From positions 13,347,269 through 13,411,268 of the forward strand of contig OZ022585.1 in the NCBI GenBank assembly GCA_963669155.1: a stretch of 64,000 nt of DNA. Reading direction: 5' to 3'. Below the pieces are notes generated by a model. It worked only from the letters and a program-made list of their open reading frames with translations. It had not been told where the DNA came from and made no database searches. This DNA is from Arbacia lixula (taxonomy: Eukaryota > Echinodermata > Echinoidea > Arbacioida > Arbaciidae). This document shows positions 520 to 51,856 of the stretch, one piece after another. Each line of letters begins with the position of its first letter. Position 1 is the stretch's first letter. A program made the position numbers and the translations under genes.

Positions 520-2130
520 TCTTGGTTAATAGTTGCTGAGTTGCTGATTGAAATATTCTGCGATTCTGAGATTTCTTACAATGCGACGCACTTTTGATGA
601 TGAAACAAATGTCTTTGCACAAAGAAGGAATTCACCATGAGCTATTATGCAAGCATGTGAAATGTGTAAGTATGAAATGCCGAATAAAAATCTCGTCTTT
701 AGCGAAAAATATAGCTTCCTTACTGCGCGATATGCAAGAAAAATGTGAACCCAACCGTTGTAAAGCGATTACTAATCGAAATTAAAGGCAGCTGTTTGCT
801 CCGTTGACATCGTCGCGCTGGTTTCTATGATTCGTCGTCAGGATCGTGACAGTCGAAAAGGTTGCATGATTTTAACTCGTACATAAAAGTTCTACGTGCA
901 TAAATGGAACAATTTCCTGTTCCCGTAGATGCAATAACAATTCCCAGCAGACTCTTTATCACACGTACACATTTCACAAAACAAAATGCATTACAGTAAA
1001 TATCAGGGTAGTGGACTCAATTGGTGAACTCAATAACGTACATCACCGCCCACACGTTTTAGTGGTCGATTGACAAATTAGGTTGTCTTATAGTGTTTAT
1101 AAGAATGAGAGTAGCTTCAAGAAAGCACTTCATCTAGTGTCACAGTGGAAATGCATTTTATGCCTTTTTCCTGCTTCACACAGTTAGAAAAGAAAAGTTT
1201 TGTCATAAAGTGAAAGCGAGAGGGCGACAGAGTAAAATGCATGTTACGTTATGTATGACTACGTTAAAGTGCCATCGATTTAAGAATTAGTGTATAGAAC
1301 AGGAGGTAGTCTATACCGACAGCTCTCGCTTGTTCTATACAAAACGTGATTTTTTTTTTCGTCTCGCTAAATTTCACGTGCAGATTTTGCTGCACGAGAC
1401 AATGAATGAATTCGACATGCTCGCGAGATCATTTGCTGGTGTCTTCTGGAAGCATACTGATCATGGATTTTTAAAGGGAAAATACTTCTAAAATAGACAA
1501 TACATGAATCTAAGACCATTGGCAAGAAGATTGCTAACAATTACATTTTGAAGGGTTTTTTTTGCCTTCCCAGTATAGTATATGCCCTTTAAGACAGGGA
1601 TCGAGATTATATCTTTCTTAATAAGTATTTTCATTTTTTTTTTCGAAATCCACAAAGGAGTTTTTTTTTTATTTTATTTGCTTTCAAAACAGGCCTCAAT
1701 TTTTTTTTATTCATATTTTAGCTCTCAGACTTTGCTGGATCCTGACCCTTCCACAAAGGGGATAGCAACACCAGTTACAGCTTTGGAAAGCCAGTACTTC
1801 TACGGAGATTTTGATAGGTGTTAGCGTTGATATTTGCTTGCATCCTGTTTTCCTTTCTTTTTGTCTTTTTCTTTGAAGAAAACATGTATATATTATAAAT
1901 ATGCTTTTACAATTTATTATGTATTTTTCGTACCTCAAAAATGAAAAATAAATTTTAAATCTTAAACTTCAAACTTCATCCGGGAACTTGCTTCCTCAAA
2001 TGGCGCCCATGTCGTATTCGGAAAGTGGTTGGTCTTGCGCTGCTTCGCGGCGCTATATAAGGGCTTTGCTTCGCAACCGATATTTGCAGTACAGCCAGTC
2101 CACAGGAAGCAGAAACACGCGTATTTTATT
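520..2130. other. Intergenic, 5' flank of the first GPCR plus unclassified DNA
   Basis: No coding sequence is supported here. Bases 520-1060 are the upstream flank of the minus-strand GPCR and are recognisably paralogous to 20990-21615. Bases about 1130-1235 match 22700-22815 on the other strand, including the shared words CATCTAGTGTCACAGTG and GTGAAAGCGAGAGGGCGACAG in part. A 30-base stretch near 1730 resembles the inner part of the foldback element at 2133-3058. The rest is AT-rich with T runs. Confidence 0.5.
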
Positions 2131-2132
2131 TT

Positions 2133-3058
2133 CAGCTCGGTAGTCGTGACCTTCACTTGACCTCTTGAACCGCGGAAAAGGTCTCCTTTTCAAGCTGCGA
2201 TATCTCCATGAATAAACCATATTTTCGTACACTTTCATTTGCAACTGTATGTTGGAGGTCGGAATTTACCAAGGGTGAAAACACATTTGATTAAAACAGG
2301 CAGAAAAATATTGCGAATTCGAGATAGATATGCGGTTCTATTTAAAAATAAATAGCTAAATAGATAAACTCTATATTTCAATGTCAATTGCCTATGAGCC
2401 GCTACCACTTATAGATCATCTGAAGCGGAATCAATTGTACTTTTTTTTTTTAAAATACCACTATTTTTCAACCTCTCCTTGTAGAAGGGTCAGGATCCAG
2501 CAAAATATCAACCATGATCAAATCCAAAATGCGTGAGACATGACGAAGTTGTGAACAATCCTAACCAGCCAATCATAGTCTGCGACCGTCGAATCGCCGG
2601 TGACAAGGCGTCATTATCGCGGACTATGATTGGCTGGTAAGGATCGTTCACAACTTCATCTTGTCTCACGCATTTTGGATTTGAACATGGCTGATATTTT
2701 GCTGGATCCTGCCCCCTCTACAAGGAGAGGTTGAAAAAAAAAGTATTTTCAAAAAGTACAGTAGATTCCGCTTCAGATGATCTATAAGAGTTGCGGGGCT
2801 TAAAAGCGATTGACATTAAAATCTAGAGTTCATTTTTATTTTTTTTTATAATTAGAACCACATATTTATCTCGAATTAGCAATATCTTTCTGCCTGTTTT
2901 GATTAAATGTATTTTCACATTTGGTAAATTTTAACCCCCAAGATACAGTTGTAAAAAAGTATACGAAAATATGGTTTATTCATGGAGATATCGCAATTTG
3001 AAAAGGAGACCTTTTCCGCGGTTCGAGAGGTCAAGTGAAGGTCACGACTACCGAGCTG
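2133..3058. repeat. Foldback element, about 925 bp, arms of roughly 460 bp
   Basis: The outer end CAGCTCGGTAGTCGTGACC at 2133 returns reverse-complemented at 3040-3058. The match continues inward through the CCGCGGAAAAGG block, the GATAAATATG/CATATTTATC block, the GGATCCTGCC block and the CCAGCCAATCATAGTC / GACTATGATTGGCTGG pair that flanks the centre near 2600. Arms differ by substitutions and small indels. There is no coding sequence inside. It looks like a non-autonomous DNA element or a large inverted duplication. No clear target duplication was found. Confidence 0.8.
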
Positions 3059-38036: not shown

Positions 38037-38657
38037 AAGACGAACCCATGCCGGGCATACCATGCATACCGGGAAAGTATGTTTTGGCAAGCACCTATTT
38101 TGGTCACGGCGATGACAGATATGTACCCGGATATTTGCATGTTAATACTTGAACAACAAGCAACGCGGCTCACGTCCACTTCGCAGATCACTGACTGAAT
38201 AGAAGGAACGTTGAAGGAGTGAAGGATCAACTGTTCATGCCTGTATATTCAGTTATTCACAAACCAAGTTGTACGGTTCTGGATTTTAGTTTTCTCAAAA
38301 TGGGTTACTTATTGAGATCATTCGTGGTTCTAGTCACGCTTTCTTCGATGATCGTGTGTCGCTGCTCTTCAGCCACGATTGACTTGACTAATGCCGATCG
38401 TATGGGAGAAGACGACGATGTCGACGACGACCAGGACGTACTTCACCGAAGTCGAGTGACGGTAGAGGTCGATGAATTCCAGGCGCTTGAGGTAAGCTAA
38501 AAGCGAGGTCTTGGCAGAGAGTTTTAAAGAGAAGCCAGGGTGATGCTATGAGTTGGGCAAAAACTTATTTGTCATACTTGTTTTCCTTTCCGGAAAGTTC
38601 ATTTTGCCATTTCCGTAAAGATATTGTAACGCTGAGTGATTATGAAGTACGTGTCCT

Positions 38658-38966
38658 GGGCCCTGTATCACAAAGAGTCGGCTGCTATCTGTAACAACTT
38701 TGCGATTGATTGCAAAGTTGCTATCTATTGCAACTCACCATATCACAAACCATCACTGCTAACCATTGCAAGTCCAAGTCTGTGCATGATTTTGAAATCA
38801 GTGATATAGTTACAATAGATCCACACAAGCTACGATCAGTATCAATTGCAAGTTACGATCGATATTGATCATAGATTCTATGTGATACATATTACACGAT
38901 TGATATTGATCGTACGATTGATCCATCGATCGTACGGTCAATCGTAGCGCTTTGTGATACGGGCCC
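38658..38966. mobile_element. GGGCCCTGTATCACAAAG MITE in collagen intron 1
   Basis: The left end GGGCCCTGTATCACAAAG and right end CTTTGTGATACGGGCCC are inverted copies. The interior is rich in GATCGAT / ATCGATC and TTGCAA words. About 309 bp, non-coding. Confidence 0.85.
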
Positions 38967-40612
38967 CAGGTATAGTTCAGCGTTGACTCTATATCAGCTT
39001 ACTGATGCAGGTAGATGGCATGGTGAAGTGGTCGATAATAAAATAAATAAAATAGTAGTGAGTTAAATTACAATGAATATAAAGTTCAGTTATAAAGTAA
39101 GCGTATATACAGTTGAGATGTAAAGTGCAGAACCTATAATCTTCCTCTAATTGTCTGCCACTGGTATCATATCTCAGGGAGAGAGGAAAGAAAGACAGAG
39201 ATGCTACTCCCTATGAAAAACAGCACACTAGCTTATTTACATGAGTGATTAAACACGACAGTAAATAAAGTCAAAGAAAGAGATACTATAGCATTTAAGA
39301 GATGCATAAGCATAAGCGTGCGCAGACCAAACAAGTCATGGCTAATATAAACGCACGACCTCTGGCCAATACCACCTGAAGGTAGAAGTTTGTCGAAGAT
39401 ATGAACAATGATTATGTAGAGTGTGAAGAGTATGTAGAGTGTGAAGAGTAAGGCTTATCCCAAGAGAATAGGCCAAGGTCTGAGAGTAGCGTCATTAAAT
39501 TGTTAAGGGAGGTTTTTAAGCTGCCTGTAAACTATATGTTACAGAGAGATGTTTTCACATTTACAATAGTGACAATACTGTAAAGTGGGGTAAAATCATG
39601 GCACTTGCAAACAAAGAAAGGTCTCACCATTAGGTATAACTTACAAGAAGAAATGTGAAAGATAAGTTCAAAAGAATGTTAAAAGTTTGTTTCAACTTGA
39701 TTAAATGATATGCAATTTAGGAAGTGTTTAGAATAATATAGACTTTGACATCTGTTTTAAAATATTTGTAAGTCAGGGTAGTCCATTTGCAAAAGAAGTG
39801 TTTTATGTTTCATGATTACGCTCCTTTGTTTTCATTCTTTATATAATCATCGGCACCGTAATCGAAAGTACCATATAATCTCTTGTTCTGTATATTCCAT
39901 AAAGTCTGAGCTTGCAGATTTGAAGCAGCAGTTTGAGATCCTGAAGGACGCCCTCAGTGCCCTAGAACCCGCACAACCAGAGCCTCGCGGTCAACGAACT
40001 CCTAGGAGCGCGACGTCGTCTGGCTACTTCGGTAGTGTTTACTCTGGCTTGTATGGCAACTGCACGTGCCGAGGGGACCCCGGTCCAATGGGACTCCCGG
40101 GTCTGCCCGGTCGGGACGGTCGAGACGGCAGGGATGCACCCGTGCCATGTTCGAACGGTAGGCCTAATATATTCTTACTCGGCGTGATAAATTATTAAAT
40201 ATGCGAAACATTTAACAATTTACAACGCGTACAAAGTCAATTAAAATCATGGGACTTAAACCACGTTAAGGAAACTTACGAAATAGATCTTTGTTTTTTC
40301 TGAAAAGTATAAAAATATCAATTCAACGAAGAAAATCTTACTTAATGTCATGTATAACTTACTACATTTAGACTTAACTCTAGACTTAACTCTAGCACTG
40401 TAAATGCACATCATTCTCATAAGGCAGTATGTCACCACGCAGCCCCCCTTCCCCTCCCCCCCCCCCCACACACAATCCCCTCCATCACCCAGCCTCCCTC
40501 TCCCCCTTCCTCTTTATTTCTCTTCTTTCAATTTTCCTCTATTCTCTTCACCCCCCCCCTCTCTCTCTCTCTTCTTTTCATATTCCTCCCTTCTCTTCCC
40601 CACCCCAACCCT

Positions 40613-40659
<47 letters not shown>

Positions 40660-42159
40660 TAATCCAATGTAAAGCAAACCTGAATGGGATCAGTCAGTTA
40701 GACCACTATTGAAGCAAGTGTCTGTTTTTTGTTTGTGTTTATTTACGTTTTCCTCAATGATCATTGCACATGTGTGACAAAACTGACACCATTGTGCTAT
40801 ATCGTCTTTGGAGGGGTTCTGTTAAACGAATCTGTCTAGTTTGAAATGTCTTCCTTTTCAATTCCAGCAAGCTCCATTCCACATCATTCAATGTCGTTGT
40901 AAAGAGGGTGTGGTTTCCTAAGTTACTCTATCCATTCAACGATACTTCGAGACGTCGCATGACATTGGGATAATAATAAATAATATACACTCCACTGAGT
41001 CAAGAACGACTCGGGATTTGATCATGAAGCTGTGTAGGTGTGTGCGTGCCCATACCAGCAGCGTGCCAATACCAACAATAGAAGCAGGTGCACATGGTTG
41101 AATGTTCTTTCACTACTTTCTCATAGCTAAATCGCCGTTGTCATATCTGCATTATAATGAGTATAAACGTGATCCACTATCTATGGAATTTCAATTTTAC
41201 TCTGTGAGTGGTACATTTGGCCCGAAGTCATTCGTACCAGTAATAATCTATTCATGCGCACATTGCAACTATGAACTCGCTTGTAGCCGGGACTGATCTT
41301 TACCTAGTGCGCCACGAGAGGGCGTATGCCACACTGACGCCACGCCATGCTCGTTCATTGGTCTCCAGGATTTGATGCCACAGTTCATATCAAAAGCTGG
41401 AGATTTGTAGCCGCCATGTCATCCTGCAAAGTACTTTCCTGCTTATCCCGCCTCCCTCTTTCACTCTCTTCTCCTCCTTCTCCTGATAATCAACAATTAT
41501 TCATCCAAGCAGAGATTATTCCCCGTCAACCCAAAATTAATTACTGCAGACACCCCGTTTGTCATGATAAAATATGTAAACGCGAAATTGCCAGTGTTCT
41601 CCTAGACGCCTCTTCCCTCCTTGCCTTTGTCCTCCATGCACCCATTGTGTTGATTGCAAGCGTCATCATCGTCACACGGATAATACTTCCCTCGTAGATT
41701 GAGTGGCCTTCATTACTTGTTTGCTGATTAGACTCTCATCTGAGCGAGTTGTCATCATTTAACTATAATTTGAGGATAAGGGTTTAAAGGAGGGTATGTT
41801 TTCTTTCTCTTCACCATTTCTTCACCTCCATTTTACGTCACGTTCTAGCCATCGCTGTAACGACCACGTCGCATAGTATCTTGAGTCGTGCACTTTGACG
41901 CACATATCTGATGAGACTTTGCTTTGTGGTCATCTCAAAAAAACAGCGATGCAATGGAGTTCGATGCAATGCATGTCGTCATTCGTCATGACCGTTGCCG
42001 TCATCGGTGGCTCATCAGCGACTCTTGCTTTCATTTGATTGGCGGTTTCTCCTCGAAACGCCGCACCCCACGGCGATTGTGATTTCTCTCAAGACGGCTG
42101 ATTGTTAGAAACTGTCATACCTTGAAGGCAAGAGCTTCTCTTGTTTCCATGACGTCACC

Positions 42160-42431
42160 TTACCCCATGGTGACGTCTTCCTCCCACATCTGGCCCTGAT
42201 GGGTGTCACTCATGCCTGAGATGCCTTCCTTGAGTTCTCTCTTCAGCACAACCATGCCAATGAGAGAGGCCACGCCTCCATTGTGGTCTCTTTCGCCTGA
42301 CGCGCCACGCCTACGCTGCTGGTTCTGATCTTGACCTTTCACCGTCAGTGGCCAAGAATCGTTACGAACCTCGTCAGCCACGTCTCCCTGTCGCTGTTTC
42401 AGCTTGGCGGTGTCGAAATGGTTTGAACGAC
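42160..42431 (-). CDS. Alternative or paralogous 3' terminal exon of the MGCTSSK gene
   Basis: It has an acceptor TTTCACTCAG before 42431, enters in phase 1 like the exon at 43648 and is open for 90 codons to a TAA. It begins (G)RSNHFDTAKLKQRQGDV, resembling (D)RQNHLQLANLRRQGGV of the 43648 exon, and shares the GGVAS(L/F) block. Both are compatible with the exon ending at 43772, so they could be mutually exclusive last exons or the legacy of a tandem duplication. Decayed further copies of the GGCGTGGCCT..GACTCGGAGC block lie at 43140-43250 and 42700-42870. Confidence 0.5.
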
Positions 42432-43253
42432 CTGAGTGAAACACAAATGAACATTGATTTTGTTAGCTACATACAAATAAAAAGAGGGGGTCGTTCTCGT
42501 ATGCTCGTACTGTCTCAGCAAATATTGGCCTTACATGACACTTATACAAACTGCAAGTCCATTAAGGAGGCTACAGTATGTTTCATTCAAAATATATGGA
42601 CAAAATCTCCACACTTTAATTGTAAAATAGAATATAGGTAAGTTTTTGTTTTTCAATTGTGTTATTCTAGAATCTGTCTTTCCTCAAATGATAGAGAGAT
42701 TTACTTGTTGAGGACGTCACGCGTACACCTTCCACCCCTGGCTGTGATGGGCGGCACCCGGCTCCGAGTCGTCACCCAACTCTATTAACCCTTCAGCACC
42801 GTTAATGTCGATAAGAGACTGAGGCCACGCCTCCCATGATCTAGTTCACCTTAAGTTCACCTCGACCTGATTAAAAAAAAACGAAATCAAAGTAAAGGAG
42901 TAGTGAAAATGTGCTCTCACATTCTGATATAATTTCAAAAATACTGGCCTGATATAACTCAAATTTAAGTATCCGTCAATCATGTCAATGAAAGAGGGAA
43001 GTTTTATCCAAATTACATACACAAAACCTTAACACTTAAGTATTTTATATTGTAACTAGGGAATATAAAAAGTAAAGCATCTACTCACAAATTGTGTTAT
43101 TCTAGAGACTTACCTTCAGGGCAAGAGCATTACTTGTGTCTTAGACCTCATCGATCACCGTGACGACATCACACTCGTTCTTCCAATTTTTAGCCTTGCT
43201 GGGCATCACCCAGCTCCGAGTCCTCACCCTTCACTCTGACCCCGTCATCGGCA

Positions 43254-44833
43254 TTATATGTCGATGACGAAGGCCACGCCTCCCTTGCGCTTCCGAACGC
43301 CGCTCTTCCTTGTGATTGGCCGGCTGAGTCTGGGTATCGGCAAAGTAGCGGCAGCTGCTTTGAGCTCATTGGCTGATTTCGCGTCGATTACATCAAACGC
43401 CACACCTCCGCGGCTGACTTTGAAGCCTTGCATCATGGCGTTGATTGTTGGAGGCTGAGATTTGGTTGAGGATGGCTCGTGCGTGGTTCGGTTGTTCACC
43501 ACTGCTGCTTTGAGCTGATTGGTTGGTTTGCCCTCGGTCACCACGCCCCCTTGGCTGGACTTCATCTCTCCCATCACTGTGGTGACTTTGACTTTGGTGA
43601 CGCCACCTTGTCGTCTCAGGTTGGCTAGTTGGAGATGGTTCTGGCGATCTGATTAAGATAGCAATGAATATTATTAGCGTTGTAAAGCAGATAAGACAAA
43701 TCAATTCACGGTGAAGATTGATGAATTGCAATGTTTCAATTTCCCTTCCCTACAAAATTAGTATGATTTACCTTTGGTGATGATTTCATCTTCTTTCTTG
43801 CACTCCTTCTCCGAGTCTAACATCGACTTCAATATTGCCCTCCAGTGCATGTCATTCTGCCGGTAGATCTCGTCGTCGTACTCATCGTCGGCATACAAGT
43901 CATCATAATTGCTCTGTTCGGCGGCTACCAATCGCTCTGTAAAAAAATTATGAAACTTGCTGTTGAAGTCTCGTGAGATTACGCAGGGAACACCTTTAGC
44001 AATGTTTAGATACAAAGAACGCTTAATACAGTTGAGCAGAAGATAATAAATTGTTGCGCACCACTTAACTTAAACGAATATATAGACGAAATGATTTCAC
44101 ATGCATGTATATAATTTCTGAAATAAGCAAAATAGTTTATGTTCCGGCTTCTCATATCTAGTGTAGAGAAGCTAAACTCTTCAGCTCTGACATGACTGAA
44201 GTGTAATGCGATCAATGTTGCATTCTGAATATGTATGCATCATCGATCTACAAAAGATATGACATGTAGAAGTATGTGGATATCAATCATTATTTACAGT
44301 TCATTTAATTATATTCGGCGGAGAATCTCCCTATTTTTTTGTTCTTTTCTTGTGTTTTAGATCACCATTAAGATCATAAACTTTTAAGATTTCATGCGGT
44401 ATGGCTTTTGAAATATTTTATAAGCGATATTTGAAAATCGGTCCCTGTCTCAGTCATTTCCACTTGATCAGCTTCAAAACACACACGCTATTTACAATAA
44501 ACGTATCATTGATGAAGATACGTACGCAAGCAGAGAAATTCGTGGACGTTCACGGTCTCATCCCTCGGGTATGATGTCGAAGGCTGGTCGATGTCGTAAC
44601 GGAAGTCATCGACGGTATCGACGTCTTTGACATCATCGTAGCCTGTCACCGCCGCAACGTTATCGACGTATTAAAGGTGTGTTTTGAAAGCGAATATAAA
44701 AAGGATAAATAAGTGTACGATAGGTTGAAACATGGATAAATATCAATATCCCTCTCTCGGATGCTCTCTTTTTTTTCTTCCCGTTTCTCTCTTTTTCTTT
44801 GTATCCTTTTCTCTCTCTCTCTCTCTCTCTCTG

Positions 44834-44885
<52 letters not shown>

Positions 44886-46341
44886 TCTCTCTCTCTTTCT
44901 CTCTTTCTACCCCCCCCCCCCCAATACATCTCTCCTTTTCTCACTAGTTCCCTTGCTGTTTTTCTCAAGAAATAAGGAACTTGTATGACATACCATTTGC
45001 GACGATGTCGTCTTCCTTGGTACCCTCCTTCTCTGAGTCCAACATCGACTTCAATATCGCCTTCCAGTGCAGGTCATTTTGCCGGTAGATCTCGTCGTCG
45101 AAGTCCTCGTCGGCATATAAGTCATCATAATAGCTCTCTTCGGCGGCTATCAATCGCTCTTTATAGGAAAAAGCATGAAACTGGCTGTTAAAGTTAAGTA
45201 AGATCCATAGAGCCAGCTTTATGGTAAGATCGCACAAGGAACAACTTTAGATACAAAGAACACACAAGAGAGAGGATTCGAAAATAAGCTTGAATCAGCT
45301 TAAATACACACATGCCATCAACAATAAGCGTATCATTCATCAAAATACGTACGCAAGCACAGAAACTCGTGAGCGTTCACGGTCTCATCCCTAGGGTATG
45401 ATGTCGAAGGCTGGTCGATGTCATAATGGAAGTCATTGACGGTATCAACGTCTTTGACATCCTCGCAGCCTCTCACCACACCGACGTTATTGATGTGGTT
45501 GACGTTATCGACGTCATCGACATCACCGTAGCCTGTCACTGGAGCGACGTATGAGGTATCCCGCAAAGGCAAGATCTGATTTAAAGTTGCCAGAAAGAAT
45601 AGACAGTATCACTTTGATTGCTCAATGTGATATATACAAAATTAATTAATATTTAATGATAATGAATAATTGTAAATCAATCAATGAGCAAATGGGTGTC
45701 GACATTATATGTAGATCGTAATGTTATCATGAGTGTGCGATATCAATTCACGAGAATTTTTGGTCTCACGTGTAGGCTAGGTACTCGTTATTCATATTTC
45801 TTTTCAATGCTAGTACTTCAAATTTTACCATATTTTTCCTAACATTACACATAATATCAAAAGTAATCTCTCATACATTGAACTACATTTTTGGCGATAA
45901 GATTATATCGCTTTTGTATAGTGGTATTTAGCATTCATGAAGGTTACGCGGGTGCACACTCAATAATAGCCTATCCGACATGACATAAATTCCCCAAATA
46001 ATCATTAATTCTTCCACTTGAATTTCATATCCACAGACTTATCTCATACCTTAAACATAAAATCGTACTTATATAACATTTAAGCTTTCCTACTCATTCA
46101 AATGCGATGAAATACAAATTATGAAGGCATGATCAAGCGAGCATTTAATGTGAAGTAGAATTTGAATGACTCCTTGTTTCAAAGTAAAACACACGTTTCT
46201 TACTCTGTTGTTCCGAGACCGGATGTTCTTCAAACCCCTGAGAAGAGAATTCCAGCGAGCTGGTTTCTTCCTGGGCTTCTCCAAAGTCTCCACAGCCACT
46301 CCTGAGGGTGGTGGGCAAACTTTAGAACTTGTGCATCCCAT
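43254..46341 (-). CDS. Unrecognised six-exon gene with MGCTSSK N-terminus and duplicated exons
   Basis: Exons, in order: 46341-46204, 45575-45353, 45158-44994, 44642-44526, 43936-43772, 43648-43254. Phases are 0,1,1,1,1. Total 1203 nt, 400 residues. The first residues MGCTSSK fit N-myristoylation (Gly2) plus palmitoylation (Cys3), so membrane attachment is inferred. A basic stretch follows (RWNSLLRGLKNIRSRNNR). Exons 2/4 encode acidic VDDVD/VKDVDTV..YDIDQPSTSYPRDETVN..HEFLC. Exons 3/5 are each 165 nt and encode YDDLYAD..YDDEIYRQND.HW.AILKSMLDSEKE. The last exon has GGV(A/V)-centred repeats with ELKAA. The 4th exon's acceptor (GGTGACAG) has a weak pyrimidine tract. A rival last exon lies at 42160-42431. 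I know no family with these motifs. The gene is antisense within a collagen intron. Confidence 0.7.
43770..45580 (-). repeat. Tandem duplication of an exon pair plus introns
   Basis: Block A (about 45580-44994) and block B (about 44672-43770) are parallel copies. Both 165-nt exons align without gaps. The intron words TAGATACAAAGAAC and AATAARCGTATCATT are shared, and both first exons of a pair end TGCTTGC before GTACGT. The copies have diverged at many silent and several replacement sites but keep frame. Confidence 0.85.
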
Positions 46342-46871
46342 ATTGGTCGAAATTCGCTAATAAATCAAATAATTTTGAAGAAATTCCAGAGAAACCGCAA
46401 AGTGCAAGTACTCTCAATGGAGATTAAACCAATAATCAATGATAAACGCACTTTTCGTTGATAGGTTCCAGTTTCTACGGTGATGCGTAGTGACGCGCAT
46501 GATTTATTATGACGTCACAATATACATACGCCTCTATACATACGCAAGGCAACAAAAGGGGAAATTGAGTCGATTTTCGAAGAATCGTTTCATATGCCTT
46601 TATATGCCTCATAATTTATCTTTATTGGCTTTTCATAGACATGTAGCTATAGATGGATAGAAATAGAGGTACACAGAGGTGGAAAAAAAATCGAGCGAAG
46701 ACCAAAAAAAGAAAGAAGATTATGCCAAACAAATGATGAGTCAAGCGATGTGTAGTTCAAGCTACACTTCAAAATAATCTCACTCTTGTATATCTATTTG
46801 CGGGTTCTCTTTCCATTTACCTCTAACCCCTCTCTCTCTCTCTTTCTTTTTTTTTTCTCTCTCTCTATCTC

Positions 46872-46904
<33 letters not shown>

Positions 46905-47121
46905 TTTTCTCCTCCTTTCAACATCATTTTCTTTCAAATTGCCAGGACCAGCTACCCACCACACAGAGAGTTCTGGAGGCTCTGGAGGCAGTACGACATC
47001 CGGGTCGCCACATCTTGGCTGTGGGTCCTACGTCAGATGGGGTCGAACCACCTGCCCCGATGGGAGTCTCCTCGTTTATGAAGGTCTGTATAATCATCCC
47101 TCGGCCTATGACTGCGTGAGC

Positions 47122-47595
47122 TTAAAGGGATAGTTCACCCTGAAATTAAGTTTGTTTTACAAAAAGAAGATTCGTGAAAGAAATATATTAGTGAGGTTTT
47201 GATGAAAATCCGTCAAAGGATAAGAAGTTATCATCTTTTAAAATTGTGATGTTGTGACGTCACATTTTTTCTTATTGACAAAGTGCATGTTCTTTAAAGG
47301 TTATGCATCTTTTTATCTCTGCATCTGATACATCATTATGAGTACATTTTTACACACAAACCTGTATAGAGAAAATTCAATCCCTTGCATAAATAACAGA
47401 AAAGGAGCAATTTATGGAATTATTATGTAGACAACATAATCTGAAAGCACCTCCCATGCACGTAACGTCTAAAAATCGAAACTTTAAAAGAGTATAACTT
47501 TCTTATCCTTTGACAGACTTTTATCAAACCTTCACTAACATGTTGCTTTCATGTTTCTGCTTTATCGAAAACCAACTTATGCTCAGGGTCATGGG
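47122..47595. mobile_element. GATAGTTCACCC-family MITE
   Basis: It starts AAAGGGATAGTTCACCCTGA just after exon 3 of the collagen gene and ends in ACCAACTTATGCTCAGGGT. Its interior matches the copies at 26381 and 48292: CAAAGGATAAGAAGTTATCAT, and the GTGACGTCACATTTT block. Confidence 0.85.
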
Positions 47596-47607
47596 CGGAA
47601 ATCCCGG

Positions 47608-48075
47608 GGGGGGGGGGGGGCGGGGGGACGTATCCCCCCCCACCATTTCGAAGGGGGGGGGGACACAATATCAAATGTCCCCCCCACTATTTTGGGTCGT
47701 GTACCCCCACGAGACTAGGCGGATTCGATTTTTTTTTCGAAAAACGTCATACCCCCCTAACCATTTCGAAGGGGGGGGGGGGGGGGGGACACAATATCAA
47801 ATGTCCCCCCCCACTATTTTCGGTCGTGTACCCCCACGAGACTGGGCGGATTAATGTTTTTTTCGAAAAACGTCATAACACCCCCCCCCCCCCTCCCCCC
47901 ACTGAGAGCATTTTCAGAGACTGGGCGGATTAAATTAAAACGTCATACCCCCCCCCCCCCCCCCCCCCACTGAGATCATTCTCAGAGACTGGGCGGGATA
48001 AAAAAAAATGAAGAAAAAAAAAAACGCCTCCCCAAAATCCCATCACTACCCCCCCCCCCCCCCCCCCCCCCCGCT
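47608..48075. repeat. C/G-homopolymer tandem array, units of about 60-125 bp
   Basis: About four units combine long C or G runs with the words ACCATTTCGAAGG, ACACAATATCAAATGTCCCC, GGTCGTGTACCCCCACGAGA and GAGACTGGGCGGATTAA. Later units are shorter. A related piece occurs at 63.63-63.72 kb. It lies in intron 3 of the collagen gene. Confidence 0.8.
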
Positions 48076-48291
48076 CAGCTACTTCTTGAGGAAAAACATG
48101 TCCCCTCCTTTTTAACATTACCCACAGGATTTTGCACCTCCTCGACTGGCATGACTTAAATGAAAGAACATTGCATTTTTTTTTGTCTTTTTCAGGAAAA
48201 AGCGACAGTAGATTTGTTTTCATTACTCATTTTCTGTTTTTTAACATAAAGGCCTAGAAATCAGGGGGCGTTTAACCAAGCTTTGCTTAAT

Positions 48292-48780
48292 GGGATAGTT
48301 CACCCTGAAATTGTGTTTGTTAAAAAAACAGACAAACAAAAGACACATAGTAGTGAAGTTTTTATGAAAATCTGTCAAAGGATAAGAAAGTTATGATCTT
48401 TTAAAGTTTTGATTTTTTGACTTCACGTGCGAGGTACTCTCCCATAATAATGTTGTGTACATTTTGGTTCGAAAATATGCATTTCTCAACAAAAAAAAAT
48501 ATGCATCCTTGTACCTTTGTACTTGATGCATCATTAGCAATACGTTTTTACACAAAATACATGTATGAATAAAATCATTCTGTTGTCAAAAACAACAGGA
48601 AAATATACGTGATATTGTACACAAGATATGGAAGAGCTCCTCGCACGTGACGTCACAAAATTGAAATGTGAAAAGATCATAGATTTCTTATCCTTTGACG
48701 AATTTCGTCAAATGTCCATATGTTTCTGTCATGTTTCTGTTTGATTGAAACCAAGGTATCTTCAGGGTGATCTACATTTA
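48292..48780. mobile_element. GATAGTTCACCC-family MITE
   Basis: GGGATAGTTCACCCTGAAAT at the left and CTTCAGGGTGATCTACATTT at the right. The interior has TGTCAAAGGATAAGAAAGTT and the inverted AACTTTCTTATCCTTTGAC-type match at 48680-48700. It is a second copy within collagen intron 3. Confidence 0.85.
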
Positions 48781-49627
48781 AGCTATGAACGACTAATAAC
48801 GCACAGCTGCCGACCGTTTATTGTGCTGGATATTCTCCATGATTTTGACTGATATCAGGTAAAGTCGAAATCTGATCAAAATTCTTGTTGTTAACAAGTG
48901 TCTGAATTCATCGCTTATGATTTGTCAAATTTGATTAGGATTGTTGGAAATAAGCTCCCACTATGAAAACAGGAACAAATTGGGATATCTCATTTCAGCT
49001 CATGAAGCGGTCACCAGTCGTGCTTAAAGTCGTTCTTAGCCCTTAAGATCAACTTGCTGTGAGACACCCCAGGTCCCCAGAAGATTGTGAAACTGTTATA
49101 TATCAATCCTGACTCTACAGTCAACATTGACATTCATGTTTTCATCAAAGATTGTTGCCCTATTTGTTTTACTAGGGGTTATTGGTGGATCTCATTTTGA
49201 ACATCAAGGAAGCGGTGCGAACTATCTGTGCTTGCCGCTGGAGCCGATATACGATGCTGACTTCAGCTTTGGTGGACATCAAGGTGGGGCGTTTGTGTTC
49301 GGCGTGCGCATGGAATACGAGATCGACCCCACTTACTCCAATGAACCATGGAGTAACTAACGTCTACACGACAGCGGACCACCTTGTGCTGTGTGCCTCG
49401 CTCAGTGACGGCTCATGGTTGCCGCTCGCAACGTGTGTCCGTCTCCCGATTGGACGCTAGACTACCAGGGAAAACTGATGTCGGCGCACTTCACTCATCG
49501 TCGCACCGAATACATCTGCGTGGACGGCGATCCAGAAATCATCCCGCGCACGTCTGAACCAGACGCTAACGGGGCCCTTTTGCTCAAAGTAGTACACCTA
49601 AACCCTTTTTACATTTGGTTTTCTTAG

Positions 49628-51856
49628 CCCCGGGCTATCCTTAGCCCCGTATTATTTTTTGAAGCTTTTTACACTGGCATTTCTTAGCCCCGTACTATAG
49701 CTCTTAAACCCGGCTAGGGAAATCCACGATGTTCCCACTCGCAGTCGTTAGCCCCGGACTTTCTCGACCGCTTATGAATATTGATTAGTGTACGTCTTGC
49801 AGTTGCGCATGTGTACTTTGCCACTCAGCCACAAGCTAGGTCACTCGCTGGCCATTCGGATTGGTCACGGCGTCTTGGCGATTGGTCCCTCCTTAAAAGA
49901 AAGGAGCTGAATTTGTAAACAAATCGTCCACTGACATTACTGTTGAGGTTCAACTACTGATCTCTCCATCAACGTACAGATCAGTGGATTCAACCCATCA
50001 AGATCTCGACCTCAGGGGTTTCGGAAGTTGTCTAAAATCATCTGAACTGAGAGTCTTAGTTTATCTTGATTGTGACCATACAGGATGAATGGGACAAAAG
50101 GATTTTTGGAAATAAAGCGTCCTGTATCCAGTAGTTGAATTCTTAATAATCTTTAATGTACGCATAGACCATTGGTATGCCTACTTCTTACTTTCTTGTC
50201 CCACTACCTCTATAAGTTGTAATCAATGAATTGTCTGTCGAACTCTATGGGTCAACTCTGATAGTAGCCACTGCTGATTATTAGGTGATGGACGGGCATA
50301 TAATGAGTGCTTTCCTATGGGTGATTTGAGCACAGATGCTGTTTGAATATGTAATTAGGTATAAAACCCCTGTCCCCATCAACTCTATTTCCTCACTGGT
50401 TTCCCCCCGTAGGCTAATTGGTCCCTCCTGCACACTTGGTTCCCATCTTCCCTCCTGCACCCAACTTCAATAACATCACCACTAATTATTAAAGGGTAAC
50501 TAAATTAGACAAATAAGTTCCCACTAATCTTTGTAAAAGTATGCACTGAAAACGAATTCCACATTCGTTTACCGCAATAAAGTCCCATTTTGACGAAAAT
50601 GTGAAAAAACGCACGCCTCCAGTGACGTATGTGAAGTCAAAATGCCATAAATGCCAACTGCGTAAATAAAATGTTTTATTCACGCTATTAAAACAATACG
50701 TTAGCAATGGGAACCCCAAAGCTTGTCCGAGATTTGTCTGAGTATAGCAACAACTAATAGATTCAAAGTGCATTACATCCATTGAATCTGAATGACAAGA
50801 TACAGGTGAATGCAATACAGTAATGCGTTACTACGTACAGGGAAAGTTGTGAATATGTTACGAAAATGGTATTGTTGACTTCCGTAGAGCATGCGTTTTT
50901 TCAAATTTTCGTCAAAATGAGACTTTATTGCGGCAAACGAATGTAAAAGTCGTTTTTAGTGGATAATTTTACATAGATCAGTGGGAACTTATTTTTCTAA
51001 TTTAGTAACCCTTAGCAACGTCAACTATACGTGCAACAACCGTAGCTTTGCGAATCGACTGGAAATTGGGTAATCTTCTAAAGCATAAGTTTGGAACTTA
51101 CAGTTTTCATCTCTGGTCCATGCTTGAACCATGGACCCTACCATGATTGAACAGAGTCTTCACCAAGTCAGACTCTTACTCATTGTATCCCGTGTTCCCG
51201 AATCTTACCCTGCATTACTTCACTGTATCCTGAATTCCCGAATCAATCCTGAGTTCGAGAATACATGGTTTTGATTGGCTATTCCCCTGGCTAAACTCAG
51301 ACCACAAAATATCTTGTTCCTTCAGATCTCGGTACTCCTCTTCACTGCACCCACAGTTACAGCGGGTTAGACTTATAACCTACAGTAACAGAAGGGGGGG
51401 GGCATGTTCTTTTTTTTTTTTTTTTTTTTTTTTGGGGGGGGGTCTTTAATAAAACTGCATAAACATCAGTTTGCAGCTCCTTTTCAAAAGGTCTAGTGTC
51501 CATGTTACACGATCGGCCGGTCACCATTCAAAGTCATGTGATCCGCTGTCATAGGGGCTTAGAGCTCTGCAAAGTAGCTGACAGGTAACCCCGGCGGACA
51601 GGGCCCTATTGCATTACCGTTGATGCTAAATTTGTTACCAACACTGTTTGGCTGTCGAGTGGTGTAACCATGGTAGTTATCATTGATGGCAGACTGAGTT
51701 TTATGCAACGGGCCGGGCCCTGCATGGTAGAAAATGCGACATGTATGGGCACGTACGTATAGCCTACAGGCCTACCACTTTACACAATACATATGTGCAT
51801 GTGCTTCAAATTTGAAAGATACAATAGGCCTATACGAGAGAGAAAGAGAGAATCAA

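What the first reader, a model, noticed from the sequence alone, without database searches (positions are those of the whole stretch)
43254..46341. Undescribed lipid-anchored-type gene with a tandemly duplicated exon pair
Six exons read in compatible phase to a 400-residue protein that starts MGCTSSK and contains two copies of an acidic YDDLYAD..QND.HW module. Each module exon is exactly 165 nt and symmetric (phase 1-1), so modules can be added without breaking frame. I know of no family with these motifs. This is the best candidate in the window for a new protein family.
Basis: partly seen in the sequence, partly recalled or inferred. Interest (0 to 1): 0.85.

Follow-up and report, generated by a model that had tools for sequence, protein, structure and literature searches.

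The report
Sea-urchin myristoylation-signal gene family, doubled module
A real but undescribed gene family, probably of a sea urchin, makes proteins that probably attach to cell membranes by a fatty acid; the copy in this window has one building block doubled, and its partner molecule is still a guess.

Summary
On the minus strand, six GT-AG exons (46341-43254) give a 400-residue protein starting MGCTSSK; exons 3 and 5 are each 165 nt, phase 1-1. The gene is real by comparison: the same genome (Arbacia lixula by inference) holds 14 loci with the same exon order, ten intact and four broken. Two of 14, the window copy and one elsewhere on the same contig, have the exon pair doubled, and the doubling came before that copy. 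Exon 3 versus 5: dN/dS 0.27.

No Pfam family or solved-structure sequence matches significantly. A distant sister family at 19 places on contig C4 (two read) has a homologous first exon, GGVAF repeats and a longer tail; decayed copies of that tail lie 3' of the window gene's stop.

Likely working: a myristoyl-tethered, multivalent adaptor with acidic helical modules and disordered basic GGVxF repeats. These resemble the tubulin-capping hairpin of stathmins, best in this genome's own STMND1-like gene, but only at motif level. Expression, myristoylation and tubulin binding are untested.

The parts
46204..46341 (-). Exon 1: start codon, MGCTSSK myristoylation-type N-terminus and basic cluster (net +9); phase-0 donor
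   Evidence: homologous to exon 1 of the C4 sister family
45353..45575 (-). Exon 2: acidic exon A, copy 1 (223 nt, phase 0-1)
44994..45158 (-). Exon 3: acidic module M, copy 1 (165 nt, phase 1-1)
44526..44642 (-). Exon 4: truncated acidic exon A, copy 2 (117 nt, phase 1-1), entered at an acceptor inside former coding sequence
   Evidence: weakest exon
43772..43936 (-). Exon 5: acidic module M, copy 2 (165 nt, phase 1-1); predicted helix - acidic loop - helix
43254..43648 (-). Exon 6: basic C-terminal exon with GGV-type repeats, ends KGGVAFVIDI-stop; predicted disordered
46342..46534 (-). About 190 bp upstream of the ATG, conserved in 8 of 9 C15 paralogs (5' UTR / promoter region)
   Evidence: alignment blocks that end at 46534-46535 and also cover exon 1, 80-87% identity
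43114..43221 (-). Decayed remnant of the longer C4-type tail just 3' of the stop, followed by a GTAAGT donor-like site
   Evidence: 43197-43114 is 61% identical to the C13 tail over 28 residues (E 1.5e-8), one in-frame TAA; against the C4 tail itself only E 0.029
42704..42775 (-). Second decayed tail remnant
   Evidence: E 9.9e-5 against the C4 tail; repeat D7
42160..42433 (-). Second C-type exon (GRSNHFDTAKLKQRQGDVADEV...) with a phase-1 acceptor; decayed or an alternative last exon
   Evidence: E 0.001
41880..42004 (-). Possible decayed remnant of the C4-type last exon, in two pieces
   Evidence: E 0.031 for each piece: weak

Best explanation
A real protein-coding gene of a multigene family that evolves by birth and death. 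SHOWN: conserved exon order, borders and phases; purifying selection strongest on the module; a myristoylation-type N-terminus in 10 of 10 intact members; doubling of exons A-M before the gene itself was copied within contig C10; homology to a longer sister family on C4, with tail-like DNA left 3' of this family's stop. INFERRED: the family was cut short by that stop. Gly2 is myristoylated and, with the basic cluster of exon 1, holds the protein on a membrane. The acidic exons and module (predicted helix - acidic loop - helix) form a negatively charged arm that the window copy has lengthened by one module. The disordered basic C-terminus offers two or three GGVxF strands that bind a partner by adding a beta strand. 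Most likely partner: alpha-tubulin, as for the N-terminal hairpin of stathmins. This would make it a membrane-tethered, multivalent tubulin or microtubule-end binder without the long stathmin helix. My own estimates: gene and family about 0.95, membrane tether about 0.75, tubulin as partner about 0.25.
For: Gene: exon order N-A-M-C in 14 loci; 10 intact proteins, window row without exons 4-5, mean column identity 81%; pooled pN/pS among intact genes: M 0.27, N 0.38, A 0.53, C 0.60; E3 vs E5 differences fall 7, 3, 14 on codon positions 1, 2, 3. History: E3 pair 95/97, E5 pair 97/90; C10b is a segmental duplicate of at least window 38430-49755. Anchor: pattern fits 10 of 10; net charge of the first 46 residues +7 to +11; Gly2, Ser6, Lys7, Cys9 invariant. 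Module fold: (mean pLDDT 78). Disordered C-terminus: (pLDDT 50). Sister family and tail. Stathmin-like motif: this genome's stathmin has GGLAFEL, its STMND1-like gene MGCNGSK...GGTSFDV; C exons vs STMND1 residues 1-240: window 66, 0 of 1000 shuffles; C14 66, 1 of 1000; C13 55, 0 of 1000; BLASTP C14 vs STMND1, E 0.002 for this single pair; of 464 ORFs of 80 aa or more, the four best against STMND1 exon 2 are family C exons, 55-66; the fifth, 48, is unrelated; 9 of the 10 best background ORFs for a hairpin profile are family C exons; two C4 proteins vs the stathmin N-terminus: 2 and 5 of 1000; vs STMND1: 10 and 23 of 1000; hairpin binds an alpha-tubulin surface used in longitudinal contacts, PMC6408325, passages.
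Against: No expression, splicing or biochemical data. Stathmin link: no Pfam Stathmin match in the whole protein or in 10 members; no PDB hit for the family profiles even at E 10; hhalign probability 0.2-3.5%; the family consensus against STMND1 gives 80 of 1000 shuffles, and against its hairpin and linker 31 of 1000; C exons against the canonical stathmin N-terminus give 37 to 169 of 1000; C4 proteins against human stathmin 1 give 122 and 160 of 1000, and window exon 1 against STMND1 1-60 gives 126 of 2000; the genome-wide search with a C exon, which scores only its best 35 candidates, lists C4 genes but not STMND1 at E up to 10; in the hairpin profile the best family E is 12 at proteome size, behind an unrelated low-complexity ORF at 8.9. 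The window copy itself has lost the first GGVAFEV (reads GGVTKVKV). Exon 4 acceptor is weak.
Confidence: 0.5

Rival explanations
1. Same gene family and membrane tether, but the GGVxF repeats bind something other than tubulin (a PP1- or PDZ-type partner, or a family-specific partner); the stathmin resemblance is convergent.
For: Weak statistics of the stathmin link and its absence from the genome-wide list. The C-terminus FVID[IML] could be read as a class II PDZ ligand (recalled motif).
Against: The C-terminus looks like a repeat cut by a stop codon rather than a designed ligand. The spacing R-G-G-V does not fit the recalled strict RVxF pattern. STMND1 exon 2 ranks four family C exons first among 464 ORFs.
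Confidence: 0.35
2. A decaying or unexpressed locus: the frame looks open only because it was duplicated recently.
For: 4 of 14 loci are broken: C10b (frameshift in exon 1), C5 (stop in the module), C15_7 (frameshifts), C15_9 (stop at codon 7). The window copy has an altered first repeat. dN/dS of window vs C10b is 0.51 and 0.52 in the modules, 0.49 in the C exon and 0.70 in exon 2. Decayed exons lie 3' of the stop.
Against: The window copy is intact over 1203 nt; 10 of 14 loci are intact; E3 vs E5 dN/dS 0.27 (Fisher p 0.003 on rounded counts); third-position excess.
Confidence: 0.1
3. The protein is single-module in practice: exons 4-5 (or exon 4) are skipped, and the doubled pair is a splicing by-product.
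For: 12 of 14 loci have one module; exon 4 starts at a cryptic acceptor; all skips keep phase 1.
Against: Exons 4 and 5 are open and conserved in both doubled copies. Exon 4 has 3 synonymous and 3 nonsynonymous differences between them (Fisher p 0.085), which is only weak support.
Confidence: 0.25

Closest known systems
C4 sister family in the same genome (19 places, two read; not a named family)
   Same: Homologous first exon (MGC[IN][HN]SK ... RKTRGGNFLLRNIHNILFRKNR; scores 37-61 against C14 and window exon 1, 0 of 2000 shuffles each), same phase-0 first intron, GGVAF[ED] repeats (scores 87 and 94 vs the C14 protein, 0 of 1000)
   Different: No YDDLYAD module seen (none of the 16 rows lies on C4); three GGVAF repeats and a longer tail plus last exon, of which the window family keeps only decayed pieces 3' of its stop
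STMND1 (stathmin domain-containing protein 1; name recalled), here the gene at C11:3747732-3750194
   Same: MGCxxSK start; GGTSFDV...DELK..PPPRL resembles GGVAFDV...NELK..PIPRL; exon carrying the motif is entered in phase 1
   Different: STMND1 scores as Pfam Stathmin (E 8e-13), which no scanned family member does; it has the helical stathmin domain, absent here; no acidic module
Stathmin family PF00836 (stathmin, RB3/stathmin-4)
   Same: N-terminal hairpin motif SGQ[AS]FE[VL] vs GGVAFEV
   Different: No profile match, no long helix, several motif copies at the C-terminus instead of one near the N-terminus
Myristoyl plus basic-cluster membrane proteins such as Src and MARCKS (recalled)
   Same: Gly2 with Ser6-Lys7 and a basic cluster within 46 residues
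   Different: No Pfam domain of any such family found

Membership tests
Stathmin family (PF00836) | Profile match above Pfam gathering score | tested here: not met
   no Stathmin match in the 400-residue protein or in 10 intact members scanned at E up to 10; control: two Arbacia stathmin stretches match at E 8e-13 and 9e-12
Stathmin family (PF00836) | N-terminal tubulin-capping hairpin motif | tested here: inconclusive
   similar in motif, weak in statistics
Stathmin family (PF00836) | Long tubulin-binding helix after the hairpin | tested here: not met
   the ORF ends after the GGVAF repeats and the exon is predicted disordered; module vs stathmin gives one aligned column
Stathmin family (PF00836) | Binding of tubulin | not testable with these tools
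   needs biochemistry
N-myristoylated proteins | Start MG with permitted residues at 3, 6, 7 (PROSITE PS00008, pattern recalled) | tested here: met
   10 of 10 intact members
N-myristoylated proteins | Myristate on the protein | not testable with these tools
   needs metabolic labelling or mass spectrometry
Tandem-exon-duplication gene | Adjacent homologous exons in compatible phase, in frame | tested here: met
Any family in Pfam-A or with a solved structure | Significant profile or sequence match | tested here: not met
   Sub-threshold only: VapB (E 3e-4, 21.1 bits, cut-off 27; 6 of 10 members at E up to 10, best 0.072), CTD4 (0.019), DUF6509 (0.61) and PDB 8esq_z (0.2), judged chance

The most novel reading that the evidence does not exclude
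A superfamily (14 loci plus 19 places, so far seen in one genome) of membrane-tethered tubulin regulators: STMND1-type genes that lost the stathmin helix, multiplied the tubulin-capping hairpin, gained an acidic helical module, were shortened by a stop codon and, in two copies, lengthened by exon-pair duplication.
Probability: 0.2. Interest if true: 0.7.

Novelty: new variant of a known kind. Interest (0 to 1): 0.45.

Why it matters
It adds an undescribed protein family of 14 loci, with a related family at 19 places, to one genome. It gives a clean, relatively datable case of how a symmetric exon pair is added: the breakpoint fell inside an exon and a coding CAG may have been recruited as the new acceptor. 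If the hairpin reading is right, it is a family of membrane-tethered, multi-hairpin tubulin binders, a design not described as far as I recall (not searched exhaustively).

Tried and rejected
EF-hand reading of the acidic module: the loop DDDFDDEIYRQN misses the recalled EF-hand pattern at several places and Pfam gave nothing. Stathmin-helix reading of the module (LIAAEE vs LEAAEE): hhalign gives one aligned column. Module vs last exon of the C4 genes: scores 23 and 27, 819 and 511 of 2000 shuffles: no relation shown. PDZ ligand at the C-terminus: set aside because the end looks like a repeat cut by a stop. Viral and prokaryotic relatives: none by tblastn after 41 and 8 pattern matches. Phage records: no match for window 44900-45700. 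Rfam (gathering) and tRNA scans of the window: none. The C4 repeat protein: no Pfam match above cut-off and no PDB match below E 0.5. First dN/dS figures for the acidic exon were wrong (a labelling error and one misplaced exon) and were redone. Searches (bad option; time limit; file name) gave nothing. Papers: one search looked for four of the family's peptides (0 papers); some searches were seen as listings of 10, 15 and 10 papers of 329, 31 and 38, none of which is on this family by title; the listings served the species and the hairpin. PMC11310861, PMC6408325 and PMC6035175 were seen as passages only.

Full report
WHAT IS THERE. The exon-pair duplication is plain in the DNA (203 nt at 86% and 186 nt at 84%). 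Exon 4 is only the last 117 nt of an exon-2-type exon. The similarity between copies stops at 44669/45496, inside the old exon, so the duplication broke within an exon, and the new exon must begin at a CAG that is coding in exon 2. The same acceptor is kept in the copy C10b.

WHERE IT IS. The window lies in a 607-Mb assembly; C22 is 18.2 Mb and C23 0.6 Mb, so 22 contigs are large, and the longest is 55.64 Mb. The Arbacia lixula paper gives 607.91 Mb, 22 chromosome-scale scaffolds, longest 55.6 Mb, N90 20.9 Mb (PMC11310861, passages; C20 here is 20.87 Mb). I infer that species; the contig counts differ (590 here), so it is not proven. The gene is probably nested, antisense, in a collagen-like gene on the plus strand (fragments near 39962-40174, 46924-47133 and 49091-49360; the collagen match is below Pfam's cut-off and the other pieces have none).

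IT IS A FAMILY. The module finds 16 places in the genome and exon 6 finds 14. They form 14 loci: window, C10b (C10:23.41 Mb), C13, C14, C5 and nine in tandem at C15:11.712-11.796 Mb. All have exon order N-A-M-C. Ten are intact (window, C13, C14, C15_1 to C15_6, C15_8; 287-314 residues for the nine single-module genes). Four are broken: C10b (shifted frame in exon 1; a later ATG would lack Gly2), C5 (stop in the module), C15_7 (shifted frames), C15_9 (stop at codon 7). Two of 14, the window and C10b, have two modules. C10b is a segmental duplicate of at least window 38430-49755.

SELECTION AND HISTORY. NG86 for exon 3 vs 5 in the window: dN 0.117, dS 0.441, ratio 0.27. Differences fall 7, 3, 14 on codon positions 1, 2, 3. 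For the tail of exon 2 vs exon 4 the ratio is 0.18. Pooled pN/pS among intact genes: M 0.27, N 0.38, A 0.53, C 0.60; 1, 1, 6 and 1 pairs exceed a ratio of 1 in M, N, A and C, of 55, 45, 55 and 44 pairs with dS above 0. Between window and C10b the ratios are higher (M 0.51 and 0.52, C 0.49, exon 2 0.70, but exon 4 0.23), in line with C10b being broken. Module trees pair E3 with E3 (95/97) and E5 with E5 (97/90), so the exon pair doubled before the gene was copied within C10, with no sign of later homogenisation; the exon-A tree agrees with weaker support (85/91, 82/84) and many other forks are weak.

A SISTER FAMILY AND A LOST TAIL. A genome-wide search with the C14 C exon at E up to 10 gave 33 rows: the 14 family loci, 14 rows on contig C4 (best E 0.008), two degenerate rows beside family genes (C13, C10b), two on C1 and one on C6. 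The C4 genes (two read: L052, L053) begin MGCIHSK / MGCINSK and carry an exon 1 homologous to that of the window family (0 of 2000 shuffles against window and C14; against C14 also without the first seven residues), then GGVAFEL and two GGVAFDIDF repeats, a tail and a last exon. Scores against the C14 protein are 87 and 94 (0 of 1000). Searching with a C4 exon gives 24 rows on C4, which I merge by hand into 19 places, one row on C8 and eight weak rows at family loci. The window family ends at the last repeat. Directly 3' of its stop lies DNA matching the C4 tail: in C13, 32 residues at 59% (E 4.8e-9 for a 60-kb search); in the window, 43197-43114 at 61% to the C13 tail with an in-frame TAA (E 1.5e-8), then 42775-42704 (E 1e-4) and weaker pieces at 42209-42121 (E 0.19-0.77) and 42004-41880 (E 0.031). 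In C13 and several C15 copies the tail lies in another frame than the stop, in C5 in the same frame behind several stops. I infer that this family was cut short and that its old 3' exons are decaying; the reverse, a lengthened C4 family, fits less well. A second C-type exon at 42433-42160 is either a remnant or an alternative last exon.

HOW IT MAY WORK. All 10 intact proteins fit the myristoylation pattern, and the first 46 residues carry net charge +7 to +11 (pattern recalled). Cys3 of the window copy is not conserved; Cys9 is. The module is predicted as helix - acidic loop - long helix (mean pLDDT 78, 11 sequences). The C exon is predicted disordered (pLDDT 50) and carries two or three GGV[ATV]F motifs. 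This genome's own stathmin has VEVKTPGGLAFELVLDE, and its STMND1-like gene MGCNGSK ... KKGGTSFDVMIAIDFDELKKPPPRL. The window C exon reads SRGGVAFDVIDAKSANELKAAAATLPIPRL. Local scores against STMND1 beat shuffles for the window, C14 and C13 (0, 1 and 0 of 1000), but not clearly for the family consensus (80 of 1000); against the canonical stathmin N-terminus 37 to 169 of 1000 shuffles do as well. BLASTP gives E 0.002 for the one pair C14-STMND1. Of 464 ORFs of 80 aa or more in 205 kb (family loci included), the four best against STMND1 exon 2 are family C exons. The C4 proteins give 2 and 5 of 1000 against the stathmin N-terminus, 10 and 23 of 1000 against STMND1, and 122 and 160 of 1000 against human stathmin 1. 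Against the link stand also no Pfam or PDB hit, hhalign probabilities of 0.2-3.5%, no STMND1 in the genome-wide list, and a best family E of 12 at proteome size for a hairpin profile. The stathmin hairpin binds a surface of alpha-tubulin used in longitudinal contacts (PMC6408325, passages). I therefore hold a membrane-tethered, multivalent binder as likely and tubulin as the best single guess, at about 0.25.

LIMITS. No transcripts, no other echinoderm proteomes and no fold search (switched off) were available, so 'undescribed' means: no significant Pfam or PDB match, no paper with four of its peptides and none on it by title among those listed. Relatives annotated elsewhere as uncharacterized proteins may well exist.

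Noticed in passing
G000:C4 7.79, 9.6, 22.33, 24.73 and 25.05 Mb (L052, L053 read): A second, distantly related family at 19 places with GGVAF repeats, some perhaps with extra repeat copies (overlapping rows); the two genes read start MGCIHSK and MGCINSK.
   Followed up: partly
window 42160-42433 (-): A second C-type exon with a phase-1 acceptor downstream of the stop; 6 other loci of 14 show degenerate or partial equivalents 300-1500 nt downstream.
   Followed up: partly
window 38430-49755 and G000:C10:23406501-23416300: Segmental duplication within contig C10, 72-87% identity in pieces, covering the gene and parts of the plus-strand collagen-like neighbour.
   Followed up: partly
window 39962-40174, 46924-47133, 49091-49627 (+): Exon-like pieces of a collagen-like gene (GDPGPMGLPGLPGRDGRDGRD; YVRWGRTTCPDGSLLVYEGL) that resemble short-chain collagen C4 (name recalled); the studied gene would be nested in it on the other strand.
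   Followed up: no
L044 (G000:C11:3747732-3750194): A complete three-exon STMND1-like gene model (330 residues, MGCNGSK start; its stathmin region matches Pfam Stathmin at E 8e-13); one search lists one other stathmin locus on C11 and one weak row on C19.
   Followed up: partly
window 2090-3058 and L011 9659-10000: A repeat shared with the far end of the C13 locus, about 85% identity over 299-345 nt, in both orientations; probably a dispersed mobile repeat.
   Followed up: no
window 47600-48000: Poly-C/poly-G-rich stretches with a recurring GACTGGGCGGAT-like unit.
   Followed up: no
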